A model generated the notes under the pieces. That model made no database searches. It was not told where the DNA came from and saw nothing but the letters and a program-made list of their open reading frames with translations. From assembly GCF_029784155.1 (NCBI RefSeq), contig NC_073692.1:320287726-320351725 (forward strand): DNA of 64,000 nt, written 5' to 3'. Below, one piece after another: positions 19,179-58,694 of this stretch. How positions within the stretch are numbered: position 1 is the first letter of the stretch; each line of letters starts with the position of its first letter. This stretch comes from Uranotaenia lowii. Its lineage: Eukaryota > Arthropoda > Insecta > Diptera > Culicidae. A program made the position numbers and the translations under genes.

Positions 19179-20898
<1,720 letters not shown>

Positions 20899-43353: not shown

Positions 43354-45797
43354 ATGTTCCTGAAACGTTACCTCGCGCATCACAGCATTACAGTCAGCCG
43401 TTATCTGCTGGGGGGAGATAAACTTCGCAATAGTTCATCTGCAACTACGCAATTATCTCCTCCTTTGTTGGGCGGCGGTCATGTTCGGTGGATGTCCAGC
43501 ACTAGTTACGGGGAACCAGAATCCCTCAAACGAGATGACCCATCGGTTCCAGGTATGTTGGGTCAATTTTGTCTAAGGAGTTGAATTCGGTCCCACGCCG
43601 TAAATATCGCAAAAAACCTACCTTTTTTCAAGACTTACGTTTCGAAAATTGTTCAATCAATCTTCAAGGAACTTGACTCGAATGATAAGTTAAAGGGTCT
43701 TTAATAAATATTAATAATAAATTATAATCTATGGACACCCATGGATCTAATGCTATCTATTCCAAAAAAATAAGAATCATGGCTTAATCAATGGACGTTT
43801 CTTTCAAGGCTCCACCTGGTCACTGTACAACATTCGGAAGGTGCTGAAAGCATCGACTGCGGAAACTACTGAGGGGTTCGCTTGCATTCAGACGAGTTGT
43901 CCTGTTTGCCACATCACTCCCGGGGAAAGTCCATCACCAGGAACAGCCATCAAGAGGGAAAACATTTACATCAACAAAACGACTGGCAATTTCACCTGTT
44001 CGGCCTGCCAATATTTAGGAAGGTGGGATCATGTTGAAAAGTTTTTCGTTTCCAGCAGCGGAAAAAGTTATGGCGGCAAAACTATACAGGAAATCCGCAA
44101 ATTGAGGGATGCTTTTTTGGAAGCCAAGAAACAAAACGTGAAGCCAGCAGTAGAATTTCCTTCAGGCTTGGTTGAAGTGGATGAAACTATTGCCCCAAAA
44201 GTTTGTCACAAATTAGGATTAAATGTAAGGAATCTTTGGATAGACATTTCGATTGTATTTTAATCTTAATTAATTTATTCTCAGAATATTCCTCCAGCAA
44301 GCCTTTTGGCTATCTCAGCCAAATGGGATTCCAAAGACGAAAGCTTATATGTGCCTCTAATAGATGTAGAATCAAAAATGGTTGGCTACAAGGTACTCAG
44401 TGTGGGACCCCAGCCCTACGGCAATGGACTGGTCGAAAGAACGGTACCCGAAAACAACTGTTCCGGATTAGTGTATCTGAAATGCTCTACCTCGCACTCA
44501 TTCAACATCGCCAAACCAAATTCCAAAGAACATACAAGCGCCATTCTAGTATTAAGTATCATAGATTTGCTGGCCCTGAGTACGGCAAAAATTAACGGTA
44601 AGCACAGCTTCTGCATTGTTCCATAATAATCATAATAGTGTTTATAATATTCTTTTTTACTTGTGTTCAGCAACTGCCATATGTCTTCCGCATGATCTGA
44701 AAGCCCTTCCCCAACAGTGCCTACCTGGGCTGGAACGCTTCCAAAAACTTACCCTCTGGTTCAATTACGACACGGCTGGGTGGGATACTGCTCGGAATTA
44801 CGCCAAAAAATTGGACGAACGGCGGTGTACCTTTGTAAGACCGACAGACGCTCATCCAACACCAGCAAAGGCGATAAGCCAAGGCCAGGACCTGAAGACA
44901 ATCTTCTCTAAGGCCCAACCGATTCTGCACCAATCGATAACGACTTTTCACTCGCTCAGACAGGATGTTCTGAGTGATTTGCAGAACATTGACAAAGTTC
45001 AGGGGGTCAAGTGGAAGCGCTATCCGACTTTGAACAAACTTCTCAAAGGTCACAGAAAGGGAGAGCTCACTGTACTGACGGGACCAACTGGTTGCGGAAA
45101 AACAACATTTATGTCCGACTACTCTTTGGATCTGGCTCTGCAAGGAGTTTCGACGCTGTGGGGATCATTCGAAATCAGAAACACTCGATTGGCGTCCACC
45201 TTACTGAGACAGATGGCTGGACAACCGTTAGATGTGAACCTTGCGGAATTCGATTATTGGGCTGATGAATTTGAACGGTTACCGCTCTATTTTATGACGT
45301 TCCATGGGCAACAACCGATAAGAGTGGTGATGGAAGCTATTGAACATGCCCAATACGTTCACGATATTCAGCATGTTATTATCGATAATCTGCAGTTTAT
45401 GATGGGCGTTTCCGAGGAAAGTATGAAGCATTTGGATCGGTACTGGAAGCAGGACGCAATCATTGCCTCCTTTAGATCGTTTGCAACCCGCAAAAATTGC
45501 CATGTAACATTAGTGATCCACCCACGCAAAGAGCGGGACACAGACGAACTGACCACGAGTTCAATTTTCGGAGGAGCCAAAGCTTCCCAGGAGGCTGACA
45601 ATGTACTAATCATTCAGGACAAACGGTTGACCTCGGTGCGAGGAAAAAAGTACCTTCAAGTGGCGAAAAATCGTTACAGTGGGGACCTGGGCATAATGCC
45701 TCTCGACTTCGATAAATCTAGTTTAAGCTACGCACAGCAGAAGAGGAAAAAGTCAGAACCCACGCCGGAAGAACTAATCAAACAAAGTGATAATTAA
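43354..45797 (+). CDS. mtDNA-helicase (Twinkle/TWNK): mitochondrial replicative DNA helicase Twinkle
   Basis: Hexameric 5'-3' helicase that opens mtDNA ahead of polymerase gamma in the mitochondrial matrix. CDS join(43354..43552,43809..44224,44285..44597,44671..45797), 684 aa, equal to human Twinkle; all three introns have GT..AG ends and the phases agree. The N terminus is basic and Ser-rich, as expected for a mitochondrial presequence. Cys97/Cys100 and Cys130/Cys133 (CPVC, CSAC) form an intact zinc/Fe-S type site of the primase-like N domain. A degenerate Toprim segment ([10 protein letters not shown], about 338) follows. The RecA-like helicase has Walker [10 protein letters not shown] (about 447) and Walker [10 protein letters not shown] (about 544). 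It converges on CRIPT, with the stops 152 bp apart. Confidence 0.96.
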
Positions 45798-48367: not shown

Positions 48368-48521
48368 AAATTTTGTGACGGTTGAGCCGCCGTAGCGCAC
48401 AGTGGTTACATTTGATTTCTAGTGAAGCGAAAATAAAAACCAAGATCCGAAGCACAAAAAGTGAATTAGTTGCTTTTGTCATCGAAAATACATTGAAGGC
48501 TTAGATTATTGGCAGATTGGA

Positions 48522-50027
48522 ATGAGTGTTGGGGACGGTGCCCCAATAGGGGCACCAATGAGTGGCATTCTTGATAATGGTGAACGGAAAAGAAGGAACG
48601 TGATCCAAGATGGCGGAAAAAGACCGTTGGAAAAATGTCTATACACACACAGTGATAGTGGTCCTTATAAGGTCATTGTAGAAAGGCAAAGAGAAAAAGC
48701 AAAAGAAAAAGAAAACGAAGAAGAAAACGATTCAGAAAGCGAGGTAGAAAATGAAACGGAGAAACCAATTGGAATCAACAAAATTTCAGTAGGATTGATG
48801 TTAAAACAAAATGGCTTTACGAAAGTGATAATGGACATTCGAAAGATTGGTCGCTCAAAAGTACTAGTGTACTTCGAAGAATGGCAGGCAGCAAATAGGC
48901 TGGTGAACTGCCGAAATCTGTCCCTGAAGAATTATGTAGCGTACATACCGAGGGGTTTCGTAACTGTAAAGGGTGTAATAGGTGGCATTCCGGATGACAT
49001 AGACATCACGGAGCTGACAAACGAAATCGAGTCCAGCAAAGACATCGTGGAGATCTTCCGAATGCATCGAATGGTAAATAAGGAAAAGGTCGCAACAAAA
49101 AAGGTAGGTCTAGTATTTCGTTCTAACAAGCTTCCGGATTCGGTCCGAATATATGCGGTAAACATGAGGGTGGAGCCTTATATCAACAGAACAGTTATGT
49201 GTTATGCCTGCTTACGGTATGGCCACATAGCGGACAACTGCAAGGGAAAGAAGAGGTGTATAAATTGCGGAGATGCGGAAGGTAAAGAGCATGACAGCAA
49301 AAATTGTGGTAACATAACCAAATGTGTGCACTGTAAAGAAAACCATAAAGCATCTGACCCTAAGTGCCCTGAACGAGCGAAACAGGCAGCCATTAAAAAG
49401 TTAATGGCATGCCAAAACCTAACCTATCAGGAGGCGAAAGATGAATTCAAGTTGGAGGTTCGAAATGGGTTTGACGTACTTTCCAACATGAGGGAATTCC
49501 CCAGTATATATGAGAGTTTCGCATCAGTGACTGCAAAAAACGGAAACAATGTTTCAAAACAACAAATACAACCCAAAAAGTCAATGGCATCTACAAATAC
49601 ATATGGTGAAAGCAGTAAACAATCCGTTAGGTCAAATGTACAGTACAATCAAAAACCGAAAAAAAATCCCAACAATCTTGAAGAAGCAGGTCACAGTTTC
49701 TCACAAACAAAGAAAAGAAAAACCTCAACGTCACACGAAAACGAGGATACAGAAATTCAGGAGCAAATGCCAGTACAAAAATATTTGGAACTGCGCAAAC
49801 GGTGGGAGGAAAAAATGCAATTATTAGCGAATCAAAAGGAAAATTATAAAACGGTTATGAAGAATTCATTTGATGTTCTTACACAGATGGTAGCAACGAA
49901 CAACGAAGATGGGCGCCTGATGATGACAGAAGTCTTGAAAGAGATGGGTAAACTGTTGGGACACAACGAACAGGGTATCGTGTTTAAATCGCAAAATAAT
50001 GATGGCCTTCAAAATAATACAACATAA
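48522..50027 (+). CDS. LINE ORF1, zinc-knuckle nucleic-acid-binding protein
   Basis: 501 aa. RNA-binding/chaperone component of the LINE ribonucleoprotein (family knowledge). The N-terminal third is acidic and Glu/Lys-rich (about 55-90). A folded RRM-like middle follows (about 95-230), then three CCHC-type knuckles: CYACLRYGHIADNC, CINCGDAEGKEHDSKNC and CVHCKENHKASDPKC at about 227-285. The C-terminal part is Lys/Gln/Asn-rich with a likely coiled segment near 420-450. The ATG lies 143 bp after the LINE start. It overlaps ORF2 by 29 bp in another frame, which suggests termination-reinitiation for ORF2. No nonsense or frameshift is seen. Confidence 0.9.
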   Translation: MSVGDGAPIGAPMSGILDNGERKRRNVIQDGGKRPLEKCLYTHSDSGPYKVIVERQREKAKEKENEEENDSESEVENETEKPIGINKISVGLMLKQNGFTKVIMDIRKIGRSKVLVYFEEWQAANRLVNCRNLSLKNYVAYIPRGFVTVKGVIGGIPDDIDITELTNEIESSKDIVEIFRMHRMVNKEKVATKKVGLVFRSNKLPDSVRIYAVNMRVEPYINRTVMCYACLRYGHIADNCKGKKRCINCGDAEGKEHDSKNCGNITKCVHCKENHKASDPKCPERAKQAAIKKLMACQNLTYQEAKDEFKLEVRNGFDVLSNMREFPSIYESFASVTAKNGNNVSKQQIQPKKSMASTNTYGESSKQSVRSNVQYNQKPKKNPNNLEEAGHSFSQTKKRKTSTSHENEDTEIQEQMPVQKYLELRKRWEEKMQLLANQKENYKTVMKNSFDVLTQMVATNNEDGRLMMTEVLKEMGKLLGHNEQGIVFKSQNNDGLQNNTT

Positions 50028-53000
50028 CATACAGAGTCTAAATAAAAATAAAATCGAGCTATCACATGAGCTTAATGTTAAAAAGTATGACGCAGCTTTA
50101 CTGTCAGAAATTTGGGCAAATCAAGATAAACTTAACTCTCTTAATATAAGTGGGTACCATAAAATTTTGAAACCAAGAAATACTACTTTGGGCGGTGGTG
50201 TAGGAATATATATCAGAAATGTCTATAACTACAAAATGTACCAACTTAGCTCTGATGAACTTTTTGAAGTAATTGGGATCGAGATACCAAGTAAACAAAT
50301 AAGTTTGATATCAATATATGTAAATCCAAGAATTTCTAGTAATGAATTGGAACTTAGATTAAACAAACTATTAGATGAAACAAGGAATATAAAAGGGCTT
50401 GTTATAGGTGGTGACTTCAATTCACACAATATTAGTTGGGGATGTAACAATACAAACAACAAAGGAAAAATACTATACGATCTTATCAGCACTACAAACC
50501 TGTTAATTCTAAATGATGGTAGGAAGACCTACATACCAGCTTCTTTGAATTTTACACCGAGTGCCATAGATTTGACTCTTTGTACTCCAGATATTTTCAA
50601 CGGAATTTTATGGAACGTATTAGATCATAGTCTAGGAGGATCAGCACACATGATTGTGGAAATAGAGATTCAACAAAAAACCTCGAAAAAGAAAAGACGT
50701 ATAGTAAATACAAAAGATCTTAACAGAGCAATAGCATCCATAGCACCGGAGGACTTTAACAATCTGAAAGAGTTAGAGTCAATTGTTATGACTACGATAA
50801 ATCAAAATAGTTGCATAAGCTCATTAACCCCCAAATATTATTGGAGTCAAGAACTTAACGAACTCTACAAAAATAAACAAGTATGCAGAAGAATGTATAA
50901 CGGTTTGTCAAACGAAACCAACCTGTTATCAATGCTCAAAGCAAATGCAAAGTTCCTTAAAGCTAAAAGAATTCTTATGAGAGAAAAACTGTGTGAAATT
51001 ACCAAAAATATAGACCCAAGAAACTCAAAAGCTAATTGGAAATTAGTTAAAAACCTCAAATACCATCATAACGATAGAACAAAAAATAACGAAATATTGA
51101 CATCTTCAGAAAAAACGAATGTATTCCTAAATCACAATTTCGGCACCTCACAAGTAGGTTTGGTCCCAATTGAATCTCCCATACAAATAGAAGAACCGAG
51201 AAAACTTTTGACATTAGAGTCATGGAATAACATATTACAGACGAAAAAAAAACGCTCTGCACCAGGAACGGACAAAATCACATATGAAACGTTGCGATGT
51301 TTAGACCGCAGTGTGAAGGATAAGATAGTGAACGACATGAACTCATATTTCAATTCAGGTACATTGCCCCATCATTTAAAAACCATTAAAGTGGTTCCTA
51401 TCCTTAAACCAGGGAAGGATCCTAGTAATCCCGAATCCTACAGACCGATTTCTTTACTATCAACTCTGACCAAATCTACTAACACAGCGGTATTAAAATT
51501 ATTGCAACAACATACCGAGGAGAACAAATTACTCCCGGCTTTATCCTTTGGTTTTAGGTCAGGAAAATCGACGGAAGATTGTTTAGCTTTCGTAACCAAC
51601 CACTTAATGGAAGGCAAAAGAAATCAAATTATAAGTATTGCAGTATTCTTTGATTTCAGTAACGCATTCAACGCGGTAAATGTAGAAAAGCTGAACACGA
51701 GGCTCACAGAAATGTGTTTCCCCTCAGATTTGAACACATGGGTGAAGAACTTCCTAAATAACAGAGAACTGACAATAAAAACAGATCAAGGTCAAGTCAC
51801 AAAGACAGTCTCAACGGGATTACCTCAAGGCGATGTAATGTCCCTGTGGTATTTCCGGAATTTCTACAAACAATAAAACACGTCTTTGCAGTTTGATGTA
51901 TAATCCAAGAATGTATTTTCACTGAAAAGCCTACTTTAAAATATTACAATTCTGATGATCATGCTGACGTGATCACAAGTAATCACCATATCTCGTTTAG
52001 TTTAAGCAAAGTTTGAGGTTTGTTGAACTTTCATGACATAATCCAGGAATCTTGAAGGCTTTCGACGTTCGCGATTAGCTGACAACCTTCCCCGGACTTC
52101 AGCAACGTTTGATGATATTAATGTATTATTGATAGCAGGTTCTTGTTCATTTGCTGATACTTCATCGTCAATCGTTATCGGTGTATTTATGAGCGTGGCT
52201 TCATCGAGATCTTCAATTTCAGAACTGGAATCCTGTTCTAAAGGTATTCGCTTCAAATGAGCTACATTTCGTTCGAATGATCTCCCTGAATCATCCTCCA
52301 CTACCGCTCTTGGACCCACTCTTTCTGTAACGGTAAACTGTGTTTTCCCAAACTTAGTTGATAATTTATTTGATGGAACTAGATTTTCCATTAAAACTTT
52401 ATCCCCCTGTTGAATTTTTGATGTCTCAGCTCCACGACGAATGTCTTCTGTTTCTTTACCTTTATGCTTCCTCATGCGGTCTTGATCACGATAATCAGTT
52501 GATGTTGGTGTAGTTTCCAAATCTTCGATAGTTGGCAATTTTGAACGAATTGTTCTCCCATAACACAACTCAGTAGGTGTTTTTCCTGTAGTCGAATGTG
52601 GAGTTGTATAGTACATCATAAGATAATCTTTAAGATCTTTCTTCCAATCTCTACCGAAGGCATGGCTAATTTGAAGTCTCTTCAATAAAGATCGATTTTG
52701 CCTTTCAACAAGACCATTTTCTTGAGGCCAATATGGTGCTGTGTGATTAAGCGTTATTCCATGTACTTTACAGAATTCCTCAAATTCTTTCCCTACAAAT
52801 TGTTTAGCATTATCAAGAGTTATCGTTCTTGGATATCCAAGTCTTGTGAAAATTTGGTTCAACTTATCCACCGTGTCACGTGATGTAATGCGATTCATGA
52901 TTTCTACTTCTTTGTATCGACTGAAATAATCTATCACAACCAATAAATATTCTCCCGATGGAAGAGGTCCCATGAAATCGATTGCTATATCAATCCAAGG

Positions 53001-56000
53001 TTTCAACGGTAACTCTCGTCGTGCCATCGGAATTGGCTTGCTGGGAAGTCCAGTTAGTCTACATCCCTCACAATCAAGAACATATTTCTTGATATCCTTA
53101 TCCATCATAGGCCACCAAGCCCTTTCTCGCAATCGCTTCTTCATCACAGATTCGCCTGGATGACCTTCATGTCCCAGTTCTAACATTCGATGCCGTAAAA
53201 TTTTTGGAACGACCAGTTTGTTGCAACGCACAACCATATCGCTAAGAATTCCAAGTTCATTTGCAAATGGTTCATAATGTTTAACTAAAGAACTTGACCA
53301 TATTCCTGTACGCAAACAATCTTTCACAGTCTTTAACTCCAGATCGGAAAGTGTTGCTTCTTCTAGTTCTTGAATATCAATAGCAACGGACTCTTTGACA
53401 GCGAGCACCAAAAATTTATTATCTTGTTCGAAATCTCCAGAAGGTTCTTGCTCGACTAACCGTGAAAGAGAATCTGCTATGTTTCCTGAACCTTTTCGGT
53501 ACTTCACAACGAACCGGAAAGACTGCAATCGTAGAACCCAACGTTCAATTCGTGCACATGGTGTCGATGTAGGAGCAAAAATAATTTCCAAAGGCTTATG
53601 ATCAGTTTCAAGTTCAAATTCACGACCAATCAAATAAATTGAAAATTTCTCAACCGCCCAGACTAAAGCCAATGCTTCTTTTTCCGTCTGACAATAACGA
53701 CTTTCTGTTTTAGATAAACTTTTGCTTGCATAGCGAATGACTCGAGGTTCATTATCGGTGTGATCAATAAACTGAATTAAAACAGCTCCTAGAGCAACTG
53801 GAGACGCATCGGCGACTACTCTAGTTCGGAGATTGTTATCAAAAAACGATAGAGTTCGGACATTTGAAATAGCTTGTTTCAGATGTTGAAAACTTTCTTC
53901 ATGCTTCGCTTCCCATTTGAATCTAATATTTTTGCAAATAAGTTCTCGTAAAGGTGCTGTTATAGTTGCTAAATTCGGTATAAATTTGCCAATATACGTT
54001 ACAAGTCCAAGAAAACTTCGAACTTCTTCCGAAGTTCTAGGTTTGCGAAATTTTTGCAAACAGCCTATTTTGTTCTCCATTGGTCGAACTCCTTCAGCAG
54101 AAATCTTATGTCCTAGAAATTCTATCTCGCGTACTTTGAAGATGCATTTTTGATTATTGAGGAGAATATTACGACTTTTTAAGACAGCTAATATTTGTGA
54201 CAAACTTCGGTCATGTTCTTCTTGAGTTTCACCATAAACGAAAATATCATCAATATAATTGATTACATTTTCACAACCAATCAATATTTGTTCGAGAGTC
54301 TTCTGAAACATTTCAGGTGCACATGAAATTCCAAACATTAAACGCTTATAGCGAAATAATCCTTTATGACTTATAAATGTTGTAATATAACGGGAGGACT
54401 CTTCTAATTCAATCTGAGAATCAATTAATAACAAACAAAAATTATATTTCACACATTTTAAAATACATATCAGAAACACAAAGATCTTTAAATATTTCAG
54501 TAAAGAAAATTACCTGATGAAAAGCGTCTTTTATGTCTAGACGACTAAAAAAATTAGCAGACTTCAGGCGTGGCAAAAAATCTTCAAACGTCGGCATCAT
54601 GTAATGTTCTCTTATAATAGCTTGATTGGCGCGTCTCATGTCAACACATAAACGTAAATCACCATTGTCCTTGAGAATGGTAACTAACGGAGATACCCAT
54701 GTAGCTCCACCTTCAACTGGTTCTATGATGTCGTTGGCCAACAATTGAGCAATCTTTTCTTCAATTCTAGACAGCAGAGCAACAGGTGGTCTACGAACAC
54801 GTTGTGCTACAGGGTTTACATTCGAATTTACAGGTATGCGTAGTAGAACATTTTTCATTTTTGGAAATGGACGTTTTTCAAATGAAACAACAGAGTTAAC
54901 TGATTGGGGCAATCCAATTGTCAACACACCAAGTAATTTGGCAGTCTCTTTGCCAAGTAGAGGCTGTGCTCCATCAACAACGACAAAGAATGTAGCGACT
55001 TGCTCCGATTGGGGTAAACCATCAACAGATATAACTGCTTCAAACACTGTTGATATTTGTAGAGGTTTTGATAAAGTACCATAACCACGAAGAGTGGTGT
55101 TAGGTAGACGCTCAGGCTGACGAACTTTAACTCCTTGTTGCTTCATGTATTCCCAGGTGGTGAAATCGATGATATTTTTGGAACTACCAGAATCTACTAG
55201 CATTTGGATGAGCACACCACCAATTTTCAACCACATCATTTCGTCACCATCTCCAATTTGATAAATGAAACTCTGTTGTTCTTGATTAACATTGTTCTCC
55301 GTTGATTCTATCAACCGTACGTTGTGTGATTTAAATTTCTTATTCTGTTGTTGAAAAAAATTAGCCGAATGTTGACGCTTGTTAGTCACCTGTTTCCCAG
55401 TAGACTTACAGCACTGAGGATAATGTCCCATTTTAGAACACTTTGGACACTTAAACCCTCTAGCTGGACATAATGGATCGTTGGCAAAATGATTTTTGTC
55501 TCCACACCGGTAACATGCATTATTTAAAATATTTCTTTGATCTAGAATTCTATTCACATTGGAATTAACTTGGAAAACATTGGGTCCGGAAATTTCATTA
55601 ATTGTAAGAGCTTGAAATTTAATCGATTCTGTCGATCTGACTATCCTTGTAAGTTGAGCTAAGGATAAATTTTCTTCTTGAAGTAATTTTTCTCGCATTT
55701 CCGGTGAAGAATGCTGAATAACTTTGTCAATTATCCTTAACTCACGACTTTCCACTTCCGATTTACCAAAATTACATTTATTCGCTTGTTCCAAACAACG
55801 AGTAAGGAATTTTGATAGTGACTCTTTTTCACCATCTTGTCCCGTTTGAAGAAACAGTTTACAAAATTCGTTTCGTTCATAGGATTCATGATGTTTTGGT
55901 GAGAAAAACTCATCGAGTTTTGCAATAGCTACCTAAAGTTTTACCATATTATGTGAGTATATGGAATTAAAAAAAAAATAAACTTATCAACAGTTACCTT

Positions 56001-58694
56001 AAAAGGGTCTACATTATGCGCTTTATCCTCAGCAACATTTGCACCATCAAGTGAATAAAACACATCCTGGAGTTCAACACCTCCTTTGGCTAGTAAAATA
56101 TTTCTCAACCTGGTTGCATTTTTCTCTCCTGCAGCTGCTACAATCACTTCGAAATTACGTCGCCATTTATGCCATTCTGTCCGAATTTATGTTGTATGTA
56201 GATGATTGAATTTAAAAGGACAGATATTCCAAGCTTCCATTTGAAGGCTAAAATTATAATACTATTAGTAACAGGTGATGTCATGGTAACGTATTTAAAA
56301 TTTATTGTAGTGAATTGAGCAACGAAAATTTGAAAAATTTCCAGTATTCAAGCTCGAAGCCAATCATTTTTCTGGCTCGAAGCCAACGGTATTTCAAGCT
56401 CGAAGCCAACCGTTTTTTTTTTTTCAAGCTCGAAGCCAATCATTTTTCCGGCTCGAAGCCAACGGTATTTCAAGCTCGAAGCCAACCGTTTTTTTTCAAG
56501 CTCGAAGCCAATCATTTTCCCGGCCGAAGCCAACGGTATTTCAAGCTCGAAGCCAACCGTTTTTCAAGCTCGAAGCCAAAAAAAAAATTTAAAATTTTTT
56601 TTTAGTCACTGGAATGATTTTTATACAATCTCTAAAACAGTGCGATTGTTTTATAAGATTGATTAAAAGACTAATAAAGAACAAAAATGACTTACATGTA
56701 ATAAAATGAATTCTTATAATCCTTGGATACTAAAATTATTCTTCTTTTCACTCGTCGCCAGATGTGGTATTTCCGGAATTTCTACAAACAATAAAACACG
56801 TCTTTGCAGTTTGATGTATAATCCAAGAATGTATTTTCACTGAAAAGCCTACTTTAAAATATTACAATTCTGATGATCATGCTGACGTGATCACAAGTAA
56901 TCACCATAGTCCCCGACACTGTTTAATCTCTACACGACAAAACTTCACAGCACAGATCCAGAAGAAGAAAAGATAGTCACTGTACAGTTTGCTGATGACT
57001 TCATCAAGATTGTTCAGGGAAAAACTTTAAAAGAAGCCATAGACAAAGCGCAACGTGCCATCAACCGTTTTGCTAATTACAGTATAGAGCTTAATCTTCA
57101 GCTGAACCCAAGCAAAACCAAGGCTATGGTGTTCATCCAGAAAAATGTAGATCTAGGACTAACCGTCATGGGATCACCTATTGAAAATGTGAGAAACTAT
57201 AAATATCTGGGTGTTTTCCTTGACAAAAAACTCAATTTTGTCGCACACATAAAAGAATTAAAGTCCAAAATAAAAGATCGACAAAACATGCTGAAAATTG
57301 TAGGAAGCATAAAAAAGGGAGCAACACCCAGAGTGATGATTCTCTTTCATAAAGCACTGTACGGGAGCTACTTATCTTACGGAAGCGCGATTTACGGAGA
57401 CACTCCAAAGACCTACCAGGAAATGTTAGCAGTAGCCAGTAGGCAATGCCAACGAATAGCTACTGGATGCACCAAGACCACTCCAATTAACACCCTTGCA
57501 GCATTGGCGAACGAGGAGCCTCTAACCCTAAAACGGTACTACTACGCTTTGAAAAAAATTACTCAACACTTCAAAAAAAAGGACGCTATTGCCGAACAAC
57601 TAAATGCACTTGAAGAACATGAGAATGTCCAAAACTCTAAAGTACATACGTTCATGGAAAAAGTCTATTTGACTAATTCGCAAAGAGTCAAAAATGTTTA
57701 CGAAAACTATGAAATGATAAATTCAACAGACATAGACGTGCGACCATTCATAGACGGAGTTCCGATCAATAAAAAGAAAATGAACACATCCACGATGCGA
57801 CAAATAACATTGGACCACTTAAATAACGAATACCGACATTGTACGCAAATTTACACGGACGCCTCTAAAACTACGGAGGGCTGCGGTGTAGGCGTGTATA
57901 TGAGAGATTCCGAAACGAAGATCAGCTTACGACTCGACCAACCAGTTTGTATCATGACAGCAGAATTAATCGCAATTCAAATAGCCCTGAAAGAAATCGC
58001 AAGTTTAGAAACCGAAAGGAATGTAATACTTACAGATTCACAAGCAGCATGCCAACTGCTTCTTTCTTGCCAAATAGAAAAAAGCTGGGATCAACTGACA
58101 GGCGAAATATGTCGCAATTTGCAGCTTACTAAATCCATACTTCAATGGATACCGGGACACATCGGTGTTGCAGGGAACGAAGAAGCCGATTGCCTGGCCA
58201 AGACAGGAGTTAATTCGGATGCAATTGTTCTAAACAAATTGCTTTGGATCGACGCTATTAGAAGCTATAAACAGGAACTGGGAACCGCAACGAACCAATG
58301 GTATCAAGAAATGGCATTAAACGGCAACAAAGGGAAGAAATTTTTCGATTTGTGCACCGAATTTCCAATCAAACCGTGGTTCTGGTACGCCGAACTGGAC
58401 GGGGAAGAGATCCGTTTGCTGAATAGAGTTCTTGCTGGCCATGACTTTTCAGAGTACTGGTTGGCTAAAATGAAAATTGGAAACCATGAATATTGCGAAC
58501 TTTGCCCACAAAAAATAAACACCACAGAACATGCTCTGCTAGACTGTGTGAAATTTAACCACTTGAGGAATCACTTCGACTGGGAAAACTTCCAAAAAAT
58601 AAGTGAAATAGTGAAGAACCAAACAAAAAATTTTAACAAACAAAGGCTGAAAGAGATTCTGAAATTCCTAAAAATGGCTAAGTTACGTGTGTAA
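49999..58694 (+). CDS. LINE ORF2: endonuclease, reverse transcriptase, RNase H (split by insertion)
   Basis: Two parts, 49999-51844 and 56914-58694, are in frame with each other when the Ty3/gypsy element and one GTCCC are discounted, for 1208 codons. Domains in order: APE-type endonuclease (QHNIQSLN, GGDFNSHNISWG, then a SAIDLT block and LGGSAHM), reverse transcriptase (FGFRSGKSTED, FFDFSNAFNAV, GLPQGDVMS | SPTLFNLY, QFADDF), RNase H (YTDASKT, TAELIAIQIAL, LTDSQAA, PGHIGVAGNEEADCLAK), and a terminal CCHC motif (CELC..H..C). The break falls between the GLPQGDVMS turn and the catalytic FADD. As it stands the gene cannot make a working enzyme. Start: two ATGs in tandem at 49999 and 50002, upstream of the ORF1 stop. 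Confidence 0.92.
51845..51990 (-). repeat. 3' LTR of the Ty3/gypsy element
   Basis: On the minus strand begins TATGGTGATTACTTG and ends AATACCACA; identical to the other LTR. If the usual TG..CA rule is applied the LTR is 144 bp, but the 5-bp duplication is only flush with the 146-bp version. Confidence 0.93.
52002..56240 (-). CDS. Gag-Pol polyprotein gene with two intron-like interruptions
   Basis: Reads as three blocks, all phase 0: 56240-55998 (81 codons), 55932-54514 (473) and 54413-52002 (804 with stop). Block 1 is the gag N part (EWHKWRRNFEV). Block 2 continues gag (AKLDEFF..), then two zinc knuckles (CYRCGDKNHF and CPKCSKMGHY, about 220-255), protease (MLVDSGSS, about 328), and the start of RT (SRLDIKDAFHQ). 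Block 3 resumes RT (IELEESSRYITTF, RLMFGISCAPE, YIDD), then RNase H, then integrase with an HHCC finger (GHEGHPG..DCEGC) and DD35E residues (IDFMGP, LDNAKQF, ENGLVERQ). Unspliced, the gag frame stops soon after 55997. An in-frame TAA at 56187-56189 also lies in block 1. Product would be about 1357 aa. Confidence 0.85.
54414..54513 (-). other. 100-bp intron-like segment inside reverse transcriptase
   Basis: Minus strand: ..CATCAG | GTAATTTTC .. TTATTAATTG .. GATTCTCAG | ATTGAATTAG... It has GT/AG ends, a branch-point-like TTAAT about 15 nt before the AG, a T-rich 3' part and stop codons inside. Length 100 is not a multiple of three. It separates the Q and I of the conserved DAFHQ-IEL block without loss or gain of a residue. 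Confidence 0.85.
55933..55997 (-). other. 65-bp intron-like segment inside gag
   Basis: Minus strand: ..TTTAAG | GTAACTGTTG .. GGTAAAACTTTAG | GTAGCTATTGC. Its 65 bp is the modal size of short dipteran introns. It brings in a stop. On either side the gag reads on as DPFK | VAIAKLDEFF, the pattern expected of this gag family. Confidence 0.8.
56349..56583. repeat. AAGCTCGAAGCCAA tandem repeats in the leader of the Ty3/gypsy element
   Basis: About ten copies of (A/G)GCTCGAAGCCAA separated by short T-rich spacers of three alternating kinds, giving a higher-order unit of roughly 70-75 bp repeated about three times. It lies between the primer-binding site and the gag start. Confidence 0.85.
56744..56760 (-). 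promoter_or_regulatory. probable primer-binding site
   Basis: Two nt after the 5' LTR the minus strand reads TGGCGACGAGTGAAAAG. TGG complements the tRNA CCA end, as in primer-binding sites. I do not assign the tRNA. Confidence 0.55.
56763..56908 (-). repeat. 5' LTR of the Ty3/gypsy element
   Basis: Identical over 146 bp to 51845-51990. Being the upstream LTR it should carry the promoter of the element. Confidence 0.93.

What the first reader, a model, noticed from the sequence alone, without database searches (positions are those of the whole stretch)
54414..54513. Spliceosomal-type intron inside the reverse transcriptase of a young Ty3/gypsy element
Seen: 100 bp with GT..AG ends, branch-like TTAAT, T-rich 3' part, phase 0, placed exactly between Q and I of the conserved DAFHQ-IEL block. 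It shifts the frame and adds stops. Known: retrotransposition through spliced RNA would erase an intron, so such introns are rare in LTR elements. Inference: either splicing is regulated (unspliced RNA as genome, spliced RNA as message) or this is a late insertion of intron-like DNA.
Basis: partly seen in the sequence, partly recalled or inferred. Interest (0 to 1): 0.92.

Follow-up and report, generated by a model that had tools for sequence, protein, structure and literature searches.

The report
Introns kept inside a mosquito retrotransposon
A young virus-like jumping element in a mosquito genome carries what look like ordinary splice-out introns, one of them in the middle of its copying enzyme, and several relatives carry them too, so it probably makes its proteins from spliced RNA but copies itself from unspliced RNA.

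Summary

It is not a late insertion. All 7 loci that an exon-only search found at 95% identity or more carry it, among them separate young insertions. Relatives in two clades have unrelated GT..AG introns at the same codon boundary while their proteins stay under purifying selection. An NCBI model of this species reads straight across it (P0003).

Similar donors recur over 15 related families (Fisher p 7e-12; acceptors weaker).

Best model: spliced RNA is the Gag-Pol messenger, unspliced RNA the genome, a retroviral plan turned round. Splicing itself was not observed (no RNA data) and regulation is untested. Plant Ogre is the closest precedent.

The parts
56763..56908 (-). 5' LTR, 146 bp
   Evidence: Identical to the 3' LTR; GGGAC at 56909-56913
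51845..51990 (-). 3' LTR, 146 bp
   Evidence: Identical to the 5' LTR; GGGAC at 51840-51844
56749..56760 (-). PBS-like TGGCGACGAGTG just after the 5' LTR
   Evidence: Motif shared by related families; tRNA match not tested
56248..56695 (-). Predicted leader intron, 448 bp (GTAAGT..TTTTAG), holding the 5 leader ATGs (one overlaps the donor)
   Evidence: Donor p 0.015, acceptor p 0.36 in this family against shuffles; donors recur over 15 families; donor kept in L009-L011, L013, L015 and acceptor AG in L009-L013
56347..56579 (-). Tandem repeats able to fold into GC hairpins, inside the leader intron
   Evidence: (z -5.19)
55998..56240 (-). Exon 1, start of gag; one in-frame stop in this copy
55933..55997 (-). 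Intron 1, 65 bp, GT..AG, phase 0, in gag
   Evidence: Present in 6 family copies (window, L009-L013), absent in L015-L017
54514..55932 (-). Exon 2, 473 codons: rest of gag with zinc knuckles, protease, RT up to motif A
   Evidence: P0002; Ty3 alignment of residues 338-473; no Pfam family at E 0.001
54414..54513 (-). Intron 2, 100 bp, GT..AG, phase 0, inside RT (the finding)
52002..54413 (-). Exon 3, 803 codons and stop: rest of RT with YIDD, RNase H, integrase
   Evidence: P0001; Pfam; Ty3 structures

Best explanation
54513-54414 is a spliceosomal intron of a Mag-like Ty3/gypsy element that also has a gag intron and probably a leader intron. Shown: the insert is a family feature and separate, recent insertions carry it, so the RNA that was reverse-transcribed was unspliced at this site. 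Inferred: it is spliced out, and fully spliced RNA is the messenger; it loses the leader ATGs and the two frame-breaking introns and can encode one Gag-PR-RT-RH-IN polyprotein. Inferred: unspliced RNA, which keeps the leader intron with its hairpins and cannot make active RT, is the genome. Conjecture: RNA that splices intron 1 but keeps intron 2 gives Gag-PR with a truncated RT and so helps to set the Gag to Pol ratio. Because the genome RNA is unspliced in any case, coding introns are tolerated and can be gained.
For: 7 of 7 family loci found by an exon-only search carry the intron. Window copy, L010, L011 and L015 have different clean 5-bp duplications; LTR pairs of these and of L009 are identical, so these are separate retrotranspositions. 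Same-site GT..AG introns in two clades, 5 of 21 pairs between families above all five shuffles where 3.5 are expected by chance, lengths 0, 1 and 2 mod 3, stop early in every one. Purifying selection on both sides of the intron: window copy against L013 dS 0.147, dN 0.017 in exon 3 and dS 0.12, dN 0.036 in exon 2. NCBI model P0003 of U. lowii on the contig of the length of C1 runs DAFHQIELEESS, and the only near-identical copy on C1 has the intron in its DNA (L011). Leader donors 3' of the PBS in 15 families, Fisher p 6.6e-12; acceptors 1.6e-7; the predicted splice removes all upstream ATGs in 10 of the 14 families that have any.
Against: No RNA was seen: no junction reads, no isoforms, no particle RNA. 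How NCBI's model was supported is not known; homology alone could give it. The window family's own leader acceptor does not beat shuffles (p 0.36) and 10 of 15 acceptors are not below 0.05; the families are related, so Fisher's test overstates. Intron 1's acceptor scores low (1.7). 26 of 40 related pieces have no intron at this site, so it is not needed in the lineage. The window copy has a stop in exon 1.
Confidence: 0.75

Rival explanations
1. Real introns, but only tolerated passengers: splicing is constitutive and incomplete, the genome RNA is whatever escapes it, and neither the Gag to Pol ratio nor packaging depends on the introns.
For: Introns come and go: 26 of 40 junction pieces lack one at this site, other families have them elsewhere, and intron 1 is young. 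Nothing here shows regulation.
Against: The site-1 intron lasts over saturated synonymous divergence in clade B; the leader donor recurs across families.
Confidence: 0.3
2. Late insertion of intron-like DNA that merely broke this copy.
For: The insert breaks the frame.
Against: 7 of 7 family loci have it; same-site introns in other families; purifying selection in copies that have it.
Confidence: 0.02
3. No splicing: RT is made from unspliced RNA by frameshift or bypass across the insert.
For: The exon-3 frame stays open upstream into the insert to 54509.
Against: Inserts at the same site differ in length modulo 3 and stop the incoming frame after 1 to 23 codons, so no shared shift can work; the ends are GT..AG in each intact case.
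Confidence: 0.03
4. On origin: the site-1 intron in clades A and B arose twice at the same CAG|R boundary, rather than once with later losses.
For: The clades are parted by intron-free clades in both trees; two changes are the fewest.
Against: One clade of all carriers is not rejected (AU p 0.131), and spliced-RNA copying would make losses easy.
Confidence: 0.45

Closest known systems
Ogre (plant Ty3/gypsy); also Bianca
   Same: LTR element whose polyprotein needs removal of an intron; [quoted passage not shown]
   Different: Ogre's intron lies between the gag-pro and rt-rh-int ORFs; here intron 2 is inside the RT domain, a second is in gag, and a leader intron is likely. Plant, not animal.
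Penelope-like elements with introns (Arkhipova et al. 2003, seen only as a reference title; content recalled)
   Same: Retroelements that keep introns through retrotransposition.
   Different: Not LTR elements; another RT class and priming.
BARE (barley Ty1/copia; abstract of PMC3735527)
   Same: Separate RNA pools for translation and for packaging.
   Different: Separation by cap and poly(A); its spliced RNA favours Gag alone.
Cer1 (C. elegans LTR element; abstract of PMC10309623) and retroviruses
   Same: Unspliced genome RNA that must escape nuclear retention; retroviruses have a donor 3' of the PBS (recalled).
   Different: There unspliced RNA is also the Gag-Pol messenger and spliced RNA makes accessory or Env proteins; here the messenger seems to be the spliced RNA.
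Mag-lineage elements of Culex quinquefasciatus
   Same: Mosquito Ty3/gypsy elements, three with tandem repeats in the 5' UTR (section 11 of PMC3286476).
   Different: No statement about introns inside the elements in the 12 of 14 passages shown; the paper was not read whole.

Membership tests
Ty3/gypsy LTR retrotransposon | LTRs with a short target-site duplication | tested here: met
   146-bp identical LTRs, GGGAC on both sides
Ty3/gypsy LTR retrotransposon | RT, RNase H, integrase in this order, Ty3-like | tested here: met
   Pfam order in exon 3; Ty3 7q5b and 4ol8 best PDB matches
Mag lineage | Groups with Mag in an RT tree | not tested
   No Mag reference was in the trees; the name rests on recall, on two CCHC-like knuckles seen in P0002 and on likeness to mosquito elements
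U2-type spliceosomal intron | GT..AG ends with consensus-like sites | tested here: met
   GT..AG; donor score 8.6, acceptor 6.0 with recalled frequency tables
U2-type spliceosomal intron | Removed from RNA | not testable with these tools
   No RNA data; only gene models
Ogre-type intron element | Intron between gag-pro and rt ORFs | tested here: not met
   Intron 2 lies inside RT after motif A
Ogre-type intron element | Spliced in only part of the transcripts | not testable with these tools
   No RNA data
Retrovirus-type splicing plan | Splice donor shortly 3' of the PBS | tested here: met
   By sequence only: 12 of 15 families below 0.05, Fisher p 6.6e-12
Retrovirus-type splicing plan | Gag-Pol frame open on the unspliced RNA | tested here: not met
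   Introns 1 and 2 break the frame
Retrovirus-type splicing plan | env gene on the spliced RNA | tested here: not met
   No ORF of 120 aa or more on this strand between integrase frame and 3' LTR

The most novel reading that the evidence does not exclude
A large animal LTR-retrotransposon lineage runs the retroviral splicing plan in reverse. A donor just 3' of the PBS opens a leader intron that holds the upstream ATGs and, in about half of the families, a hairpin array that could mark RNA for export or packaging. Only spliced RNA is translated and only unspliced RNA is copied. This separation lets coding introns, even inside RT, be gained and kept, and retention of the RT intron sets the Gag to Pol ratio.
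Probability: 0.4. Interest if true: 0.88.

Novelty: new variant of a known kind. Interest (0 to 1): 0.74.

Why it matters
The usual expectation is that retrotransposition erases introns. Here a lineage seems to keep them over long times, in its own catalytic gene, and to have gained at least one recently. That makes two questions testable: how retroelements share one transcript between translation and replication, and how introns arise, since each subfamily is a natural experiment. In practice, ORF-based surveys of mosquito retroelements may call such copies broken at the introns when they are not.

Tried and rejected
Fossil spliced cDNA: L015 lacks intron 1 to the base and has identical LTRs. 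I first took this as proof of splicing. But L016, L017, L062 and L067 lack intron 1 as well, and L015 lies outside the carriers (exon 1: 88-91% to them, while they are 94% or more to each other), so a later gain of intron 1 is at least as simple. Not used as proof.

L034: a 71-bp GT..AG insert between 11-bp repeats looked like a fresh intron. About 52 bp of it match 21 other listed places at 91-94%, so it is probably a transposon fragment in one copy. Not counted.

Intron-free copies of this family: none among the 7 loci with the exon at 95% or more (DNA search skips common words). Viral contigs: no relative. Frameshift over the insert: see rivals.

Rows dropped or misread: the script called L009 intron-free because another RT 4 kb away scored first; one search shows its intron. 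L022, L034 and L060 were incomplete there. The rows for L012 exon 3 and L015 are spoiled by frameshifts and not used. L018 and L025 were left out of the second tree as degraded, L009, L013 and L014 out of both. L063, L064, L072 and L076 gave no PBS or no gag start and are not in the 15. L069's best donor is poor (p 0.43) and leaves 3 ATGs.

Literature: ten searches listed, by title and opening of the abstract, no report of introns inside pol of animal Ty3/gypsy elements. The lists are capped and only open-licence PMC papers are held, so this does not show that none exists; Repbase and similar notes were not searchable.

Full report
What was checked. It starts GTAATT, ends TCTCAG, is phase 0, breaks the frame and stops the incoming frame after 23 codons. 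The pieces on both sides are open (473 and 803 codons). Exon 3 holds RT, RNase H and integrase domains (Pfam); exon 2 reaches no Pfam family at E 0.001 but its last 136 residues align with Ty3 RT up to the very end, and exon 3 picks up from its second residue. The motif-A Asp lies in exon 2 and YIDD in exon 3 (motif names recalled), so neither exon alone should make active RT.

The host. P0003, listed as 100% identical to exon 3, is named Uranotaenia lowii and lies on a contig of 216,245,183 bases, the length of contig C1 of the window's genome; P0010 of the same species matches C3 in length. So the window is from this mosquito (taxonomy).

The element. The 146-bp LTRs are identical, with GGGAC on both sides. 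It sits inside a non-LTR retrotransposon of the other strand. This copy has an in-frame stop in exon 1; 5 of 5 other copies readable in frame there lack it.

Is the intron a family feature? An exon-only search (200 bp of exon 2) finds 7 loci at 95% identity or more (21 rows in all). All 7 carry the intron next to it: identical in the window copy, L009, L010 and L011, 93% in L012, L013 and L014 (L014 has three extra bases before GT). L015 keeps nucleotides 6-100 after an internal deletion, L016 keeps a remnant and L017 has lost most of the region. The window copy, L010, L011 and L015 have clean 5-bp duplications that differ (L009 an offset one, by eye), and LTR pairs of these five are identical. 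These are separate retrotranspositions. For the four with intron 2 whole, the template RNA was unspliced there.

Is it older than the family? tblastn with exon 3 gave 66 matches (56 of 7205 first-look candidates scored, so a near sample only). I fetched 40 short junction pieces: at the same codon boundary 11 have a GT..AG insert, 26 have none and 3 could not be read. With L020 and the window family this gives introns of 76-222 bp in two clades: A (window family, L020/L025, L021/L047) and B (L049-L056). Between families the introns are hardly alike: 5 of 21 pairs exceed all five shuffles, 3.5 expected; the closest pair, window and L020, is 67% over only 43 aligned bases. Lengths are 0, 1 and 2 mod 3 and each insert stops the incoming frame. 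Exons are under purifying selection: window copy against L013 dS 0.147 and dN 0.017 in exon 3, dS 0.12 and dN 0.036 in exon 2; within clade B synonymous differences are near saturation while pN is 0.10-0.18. A late insertion or a read-through peptide would not give this. In trees of RT pieces clade A (79%, and 83/87) and clade B (100%) are parted by intron-free clades. Two changes are the fewest, but one clade of all carriers is not rejected (AU p 0.131), so one gain with losses and two gains both stand.

Other introns. L039, L040 and L045 have GT..AG inserts after ITHKG, early in exon 3, where L038 has none. L042 and L043 have one before LNGCCWFSRLD; L041 and L044 are interrupted there too. 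L062/L063 have a 62-bp one in the protease, with a 13-bp direct repeat across its two ends, at 3 of 3 places found. Intron 1 of the window family is absent in L015, L016, L017, L062 and L067, so it was probably gained recently; a search with it finds 4 places, all family copies (the diverged forms of L012 and L013 were not found by it).

Outside this genome. Of 120 listed relatives of a clade-B exon 3 (3775 matched in all), 31 run across the site, 82 begin inside exon 3 and 7 have other residues upstream; 6 of these 7 end in Q just before residue 1, as an acceptor CAG read in frame would give. Beginning inside exon 3 is also what a contig end or an upstream stop of any kind gives, so the 82 only suggest. 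Among 120 relatives of the window's exon 3, at least 5 (P0024, P0058, P0061, P0064 from Aedes albopictus, P0075) have foreign N-termini that end near RYITTF or the ITHKG site (by eye). NCBI models P0003 and P0124 of U. lowii cross the RT site. P0134 (Ae. albopictus) and P0135 (Armigeres) cross it too, but whether their genes have the intron is not known here. P0142 (Anopheles stephensi, isoform X2) leaves near the same place and rejoins some 36 codons on. What supports these models is not shown.

The leader. Just 3' of the PBS-like motif the family has GTAAGT at 56695, and just before the gag ATG a TTTTAG ending at 56248. The 448 bp between hold the five leader ATGs, the first overlapping the donor, and a tandem array. 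In 15 families with a readable PBS and gag start, the best donor within about 110 nt of the PBS beats dinucleotide shuffles in 12 of 15 at 0.05 (Fisher p 6.6e-12). Acceptors do so in 5 of 15 (Fisher 1.6e-7; window family p 0.36). The predicted splice removes every upstream ATG in 10 of 15; L079 has none to begin with; in L065, L066 and L071 one is left, in a 16-nt exon that may be the gag start itself; L069 keeps 3. P0135 and P0142 begin with a short N-terminus of that kind. Seven of the 15 families have no intron seen in RT (L070, L073-L075, L077-L079), so the leader plan is wider than the RT introns. The families are related, so the Fisher values overstate. GGC-N3-8-GCC hairpins exceed shuffles in 7 of 15 leaders (33 against 3.5 expected in all; 7 have none and L074 has one), and the window's array folds 5.19 s.d. 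below shuffles; tandem copies are not independent.

How it most likely works. Shown: introns at family level, kept through retrotransposition, proteins under selection. Inferred: splicing, from the above and from gene models. Inferred further: spliced RNA is the messenger for one polyprotein (81 + 473 + 803 codons, counted over the three pieces) and unspliced RNA is the genome. Conjecture: the leader intron marks genome RNA for export or packaging, and retention of intron 2 sets the Gag to Pol ratio.

Compared with what is known. It works like Ogre in needing a splice for Pol (passages of PMC6317226) and like a retrovirus in its leader donor, but it fails a defining feature of each: the place of the intron, and which RNA encodes Gag-Pol. 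I file it as a new variant of intron-bearing LTR retrotransposons, a member of neither. Mag is the likely lineage by recall and likeness; no Mag reference was in the trees.

Noticed in passing
window 55933-55997 (-) and L015, L016, L017, L062, L067: Intron 1 in gag is in 6 family copies but absent in older relatives, so a recent intron gain in an LTR element is likely.
   Followed up: partly
L034, coding strand after DESC: 71-bp GT..AG insert with an 11-bp direct repeat, about 52 bp of which match 21 other listed places at 91-94%: a transposon fragment that happens to carry splice-like ends.
   Followed up: yes
L062 and L063, protease region: 62-bp intron whose ends share a 13-bp direct repeat TCCAGGTTTTGAT; 3 of 3 places found have the region.
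   Followed up: partly
L039, L040, L045; L041-L044: Introns at other RT places (after ITHKG; before LNGCCWFSRLD) in further families.
   Followed up: partly
L010:6198-6734 (-): Intron 1 of this copy holds an insertion of some 470 bp with stretches that look like tRNA-derived SINE sequence by eye.
   Followed up: no
L061, L016, L017: Internally deleted family copies; L061 joins the leader directly to the middle of RT.
   Followed up: no
window 48465-51876 and 56910-58694 (+): Non-LTR retrotransposon (endonuclease, RT, RNase H) split by the insertion of the element.
   Followed up: no
window 19549-20898 (+): Intron-free 449-aa tubulin frame.
   Followed up: no
window 44580-45797 (+): DnaB-like helicase/AAA frame, possibly a mitochondrial helicase exon.
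   Followed up: no
P0142, Anopheles stephensi: Public model called isoform X2 joins NAFHQ to KLMEQ, skipping about 36 codons of RT after the intron site.
   Followed up: no
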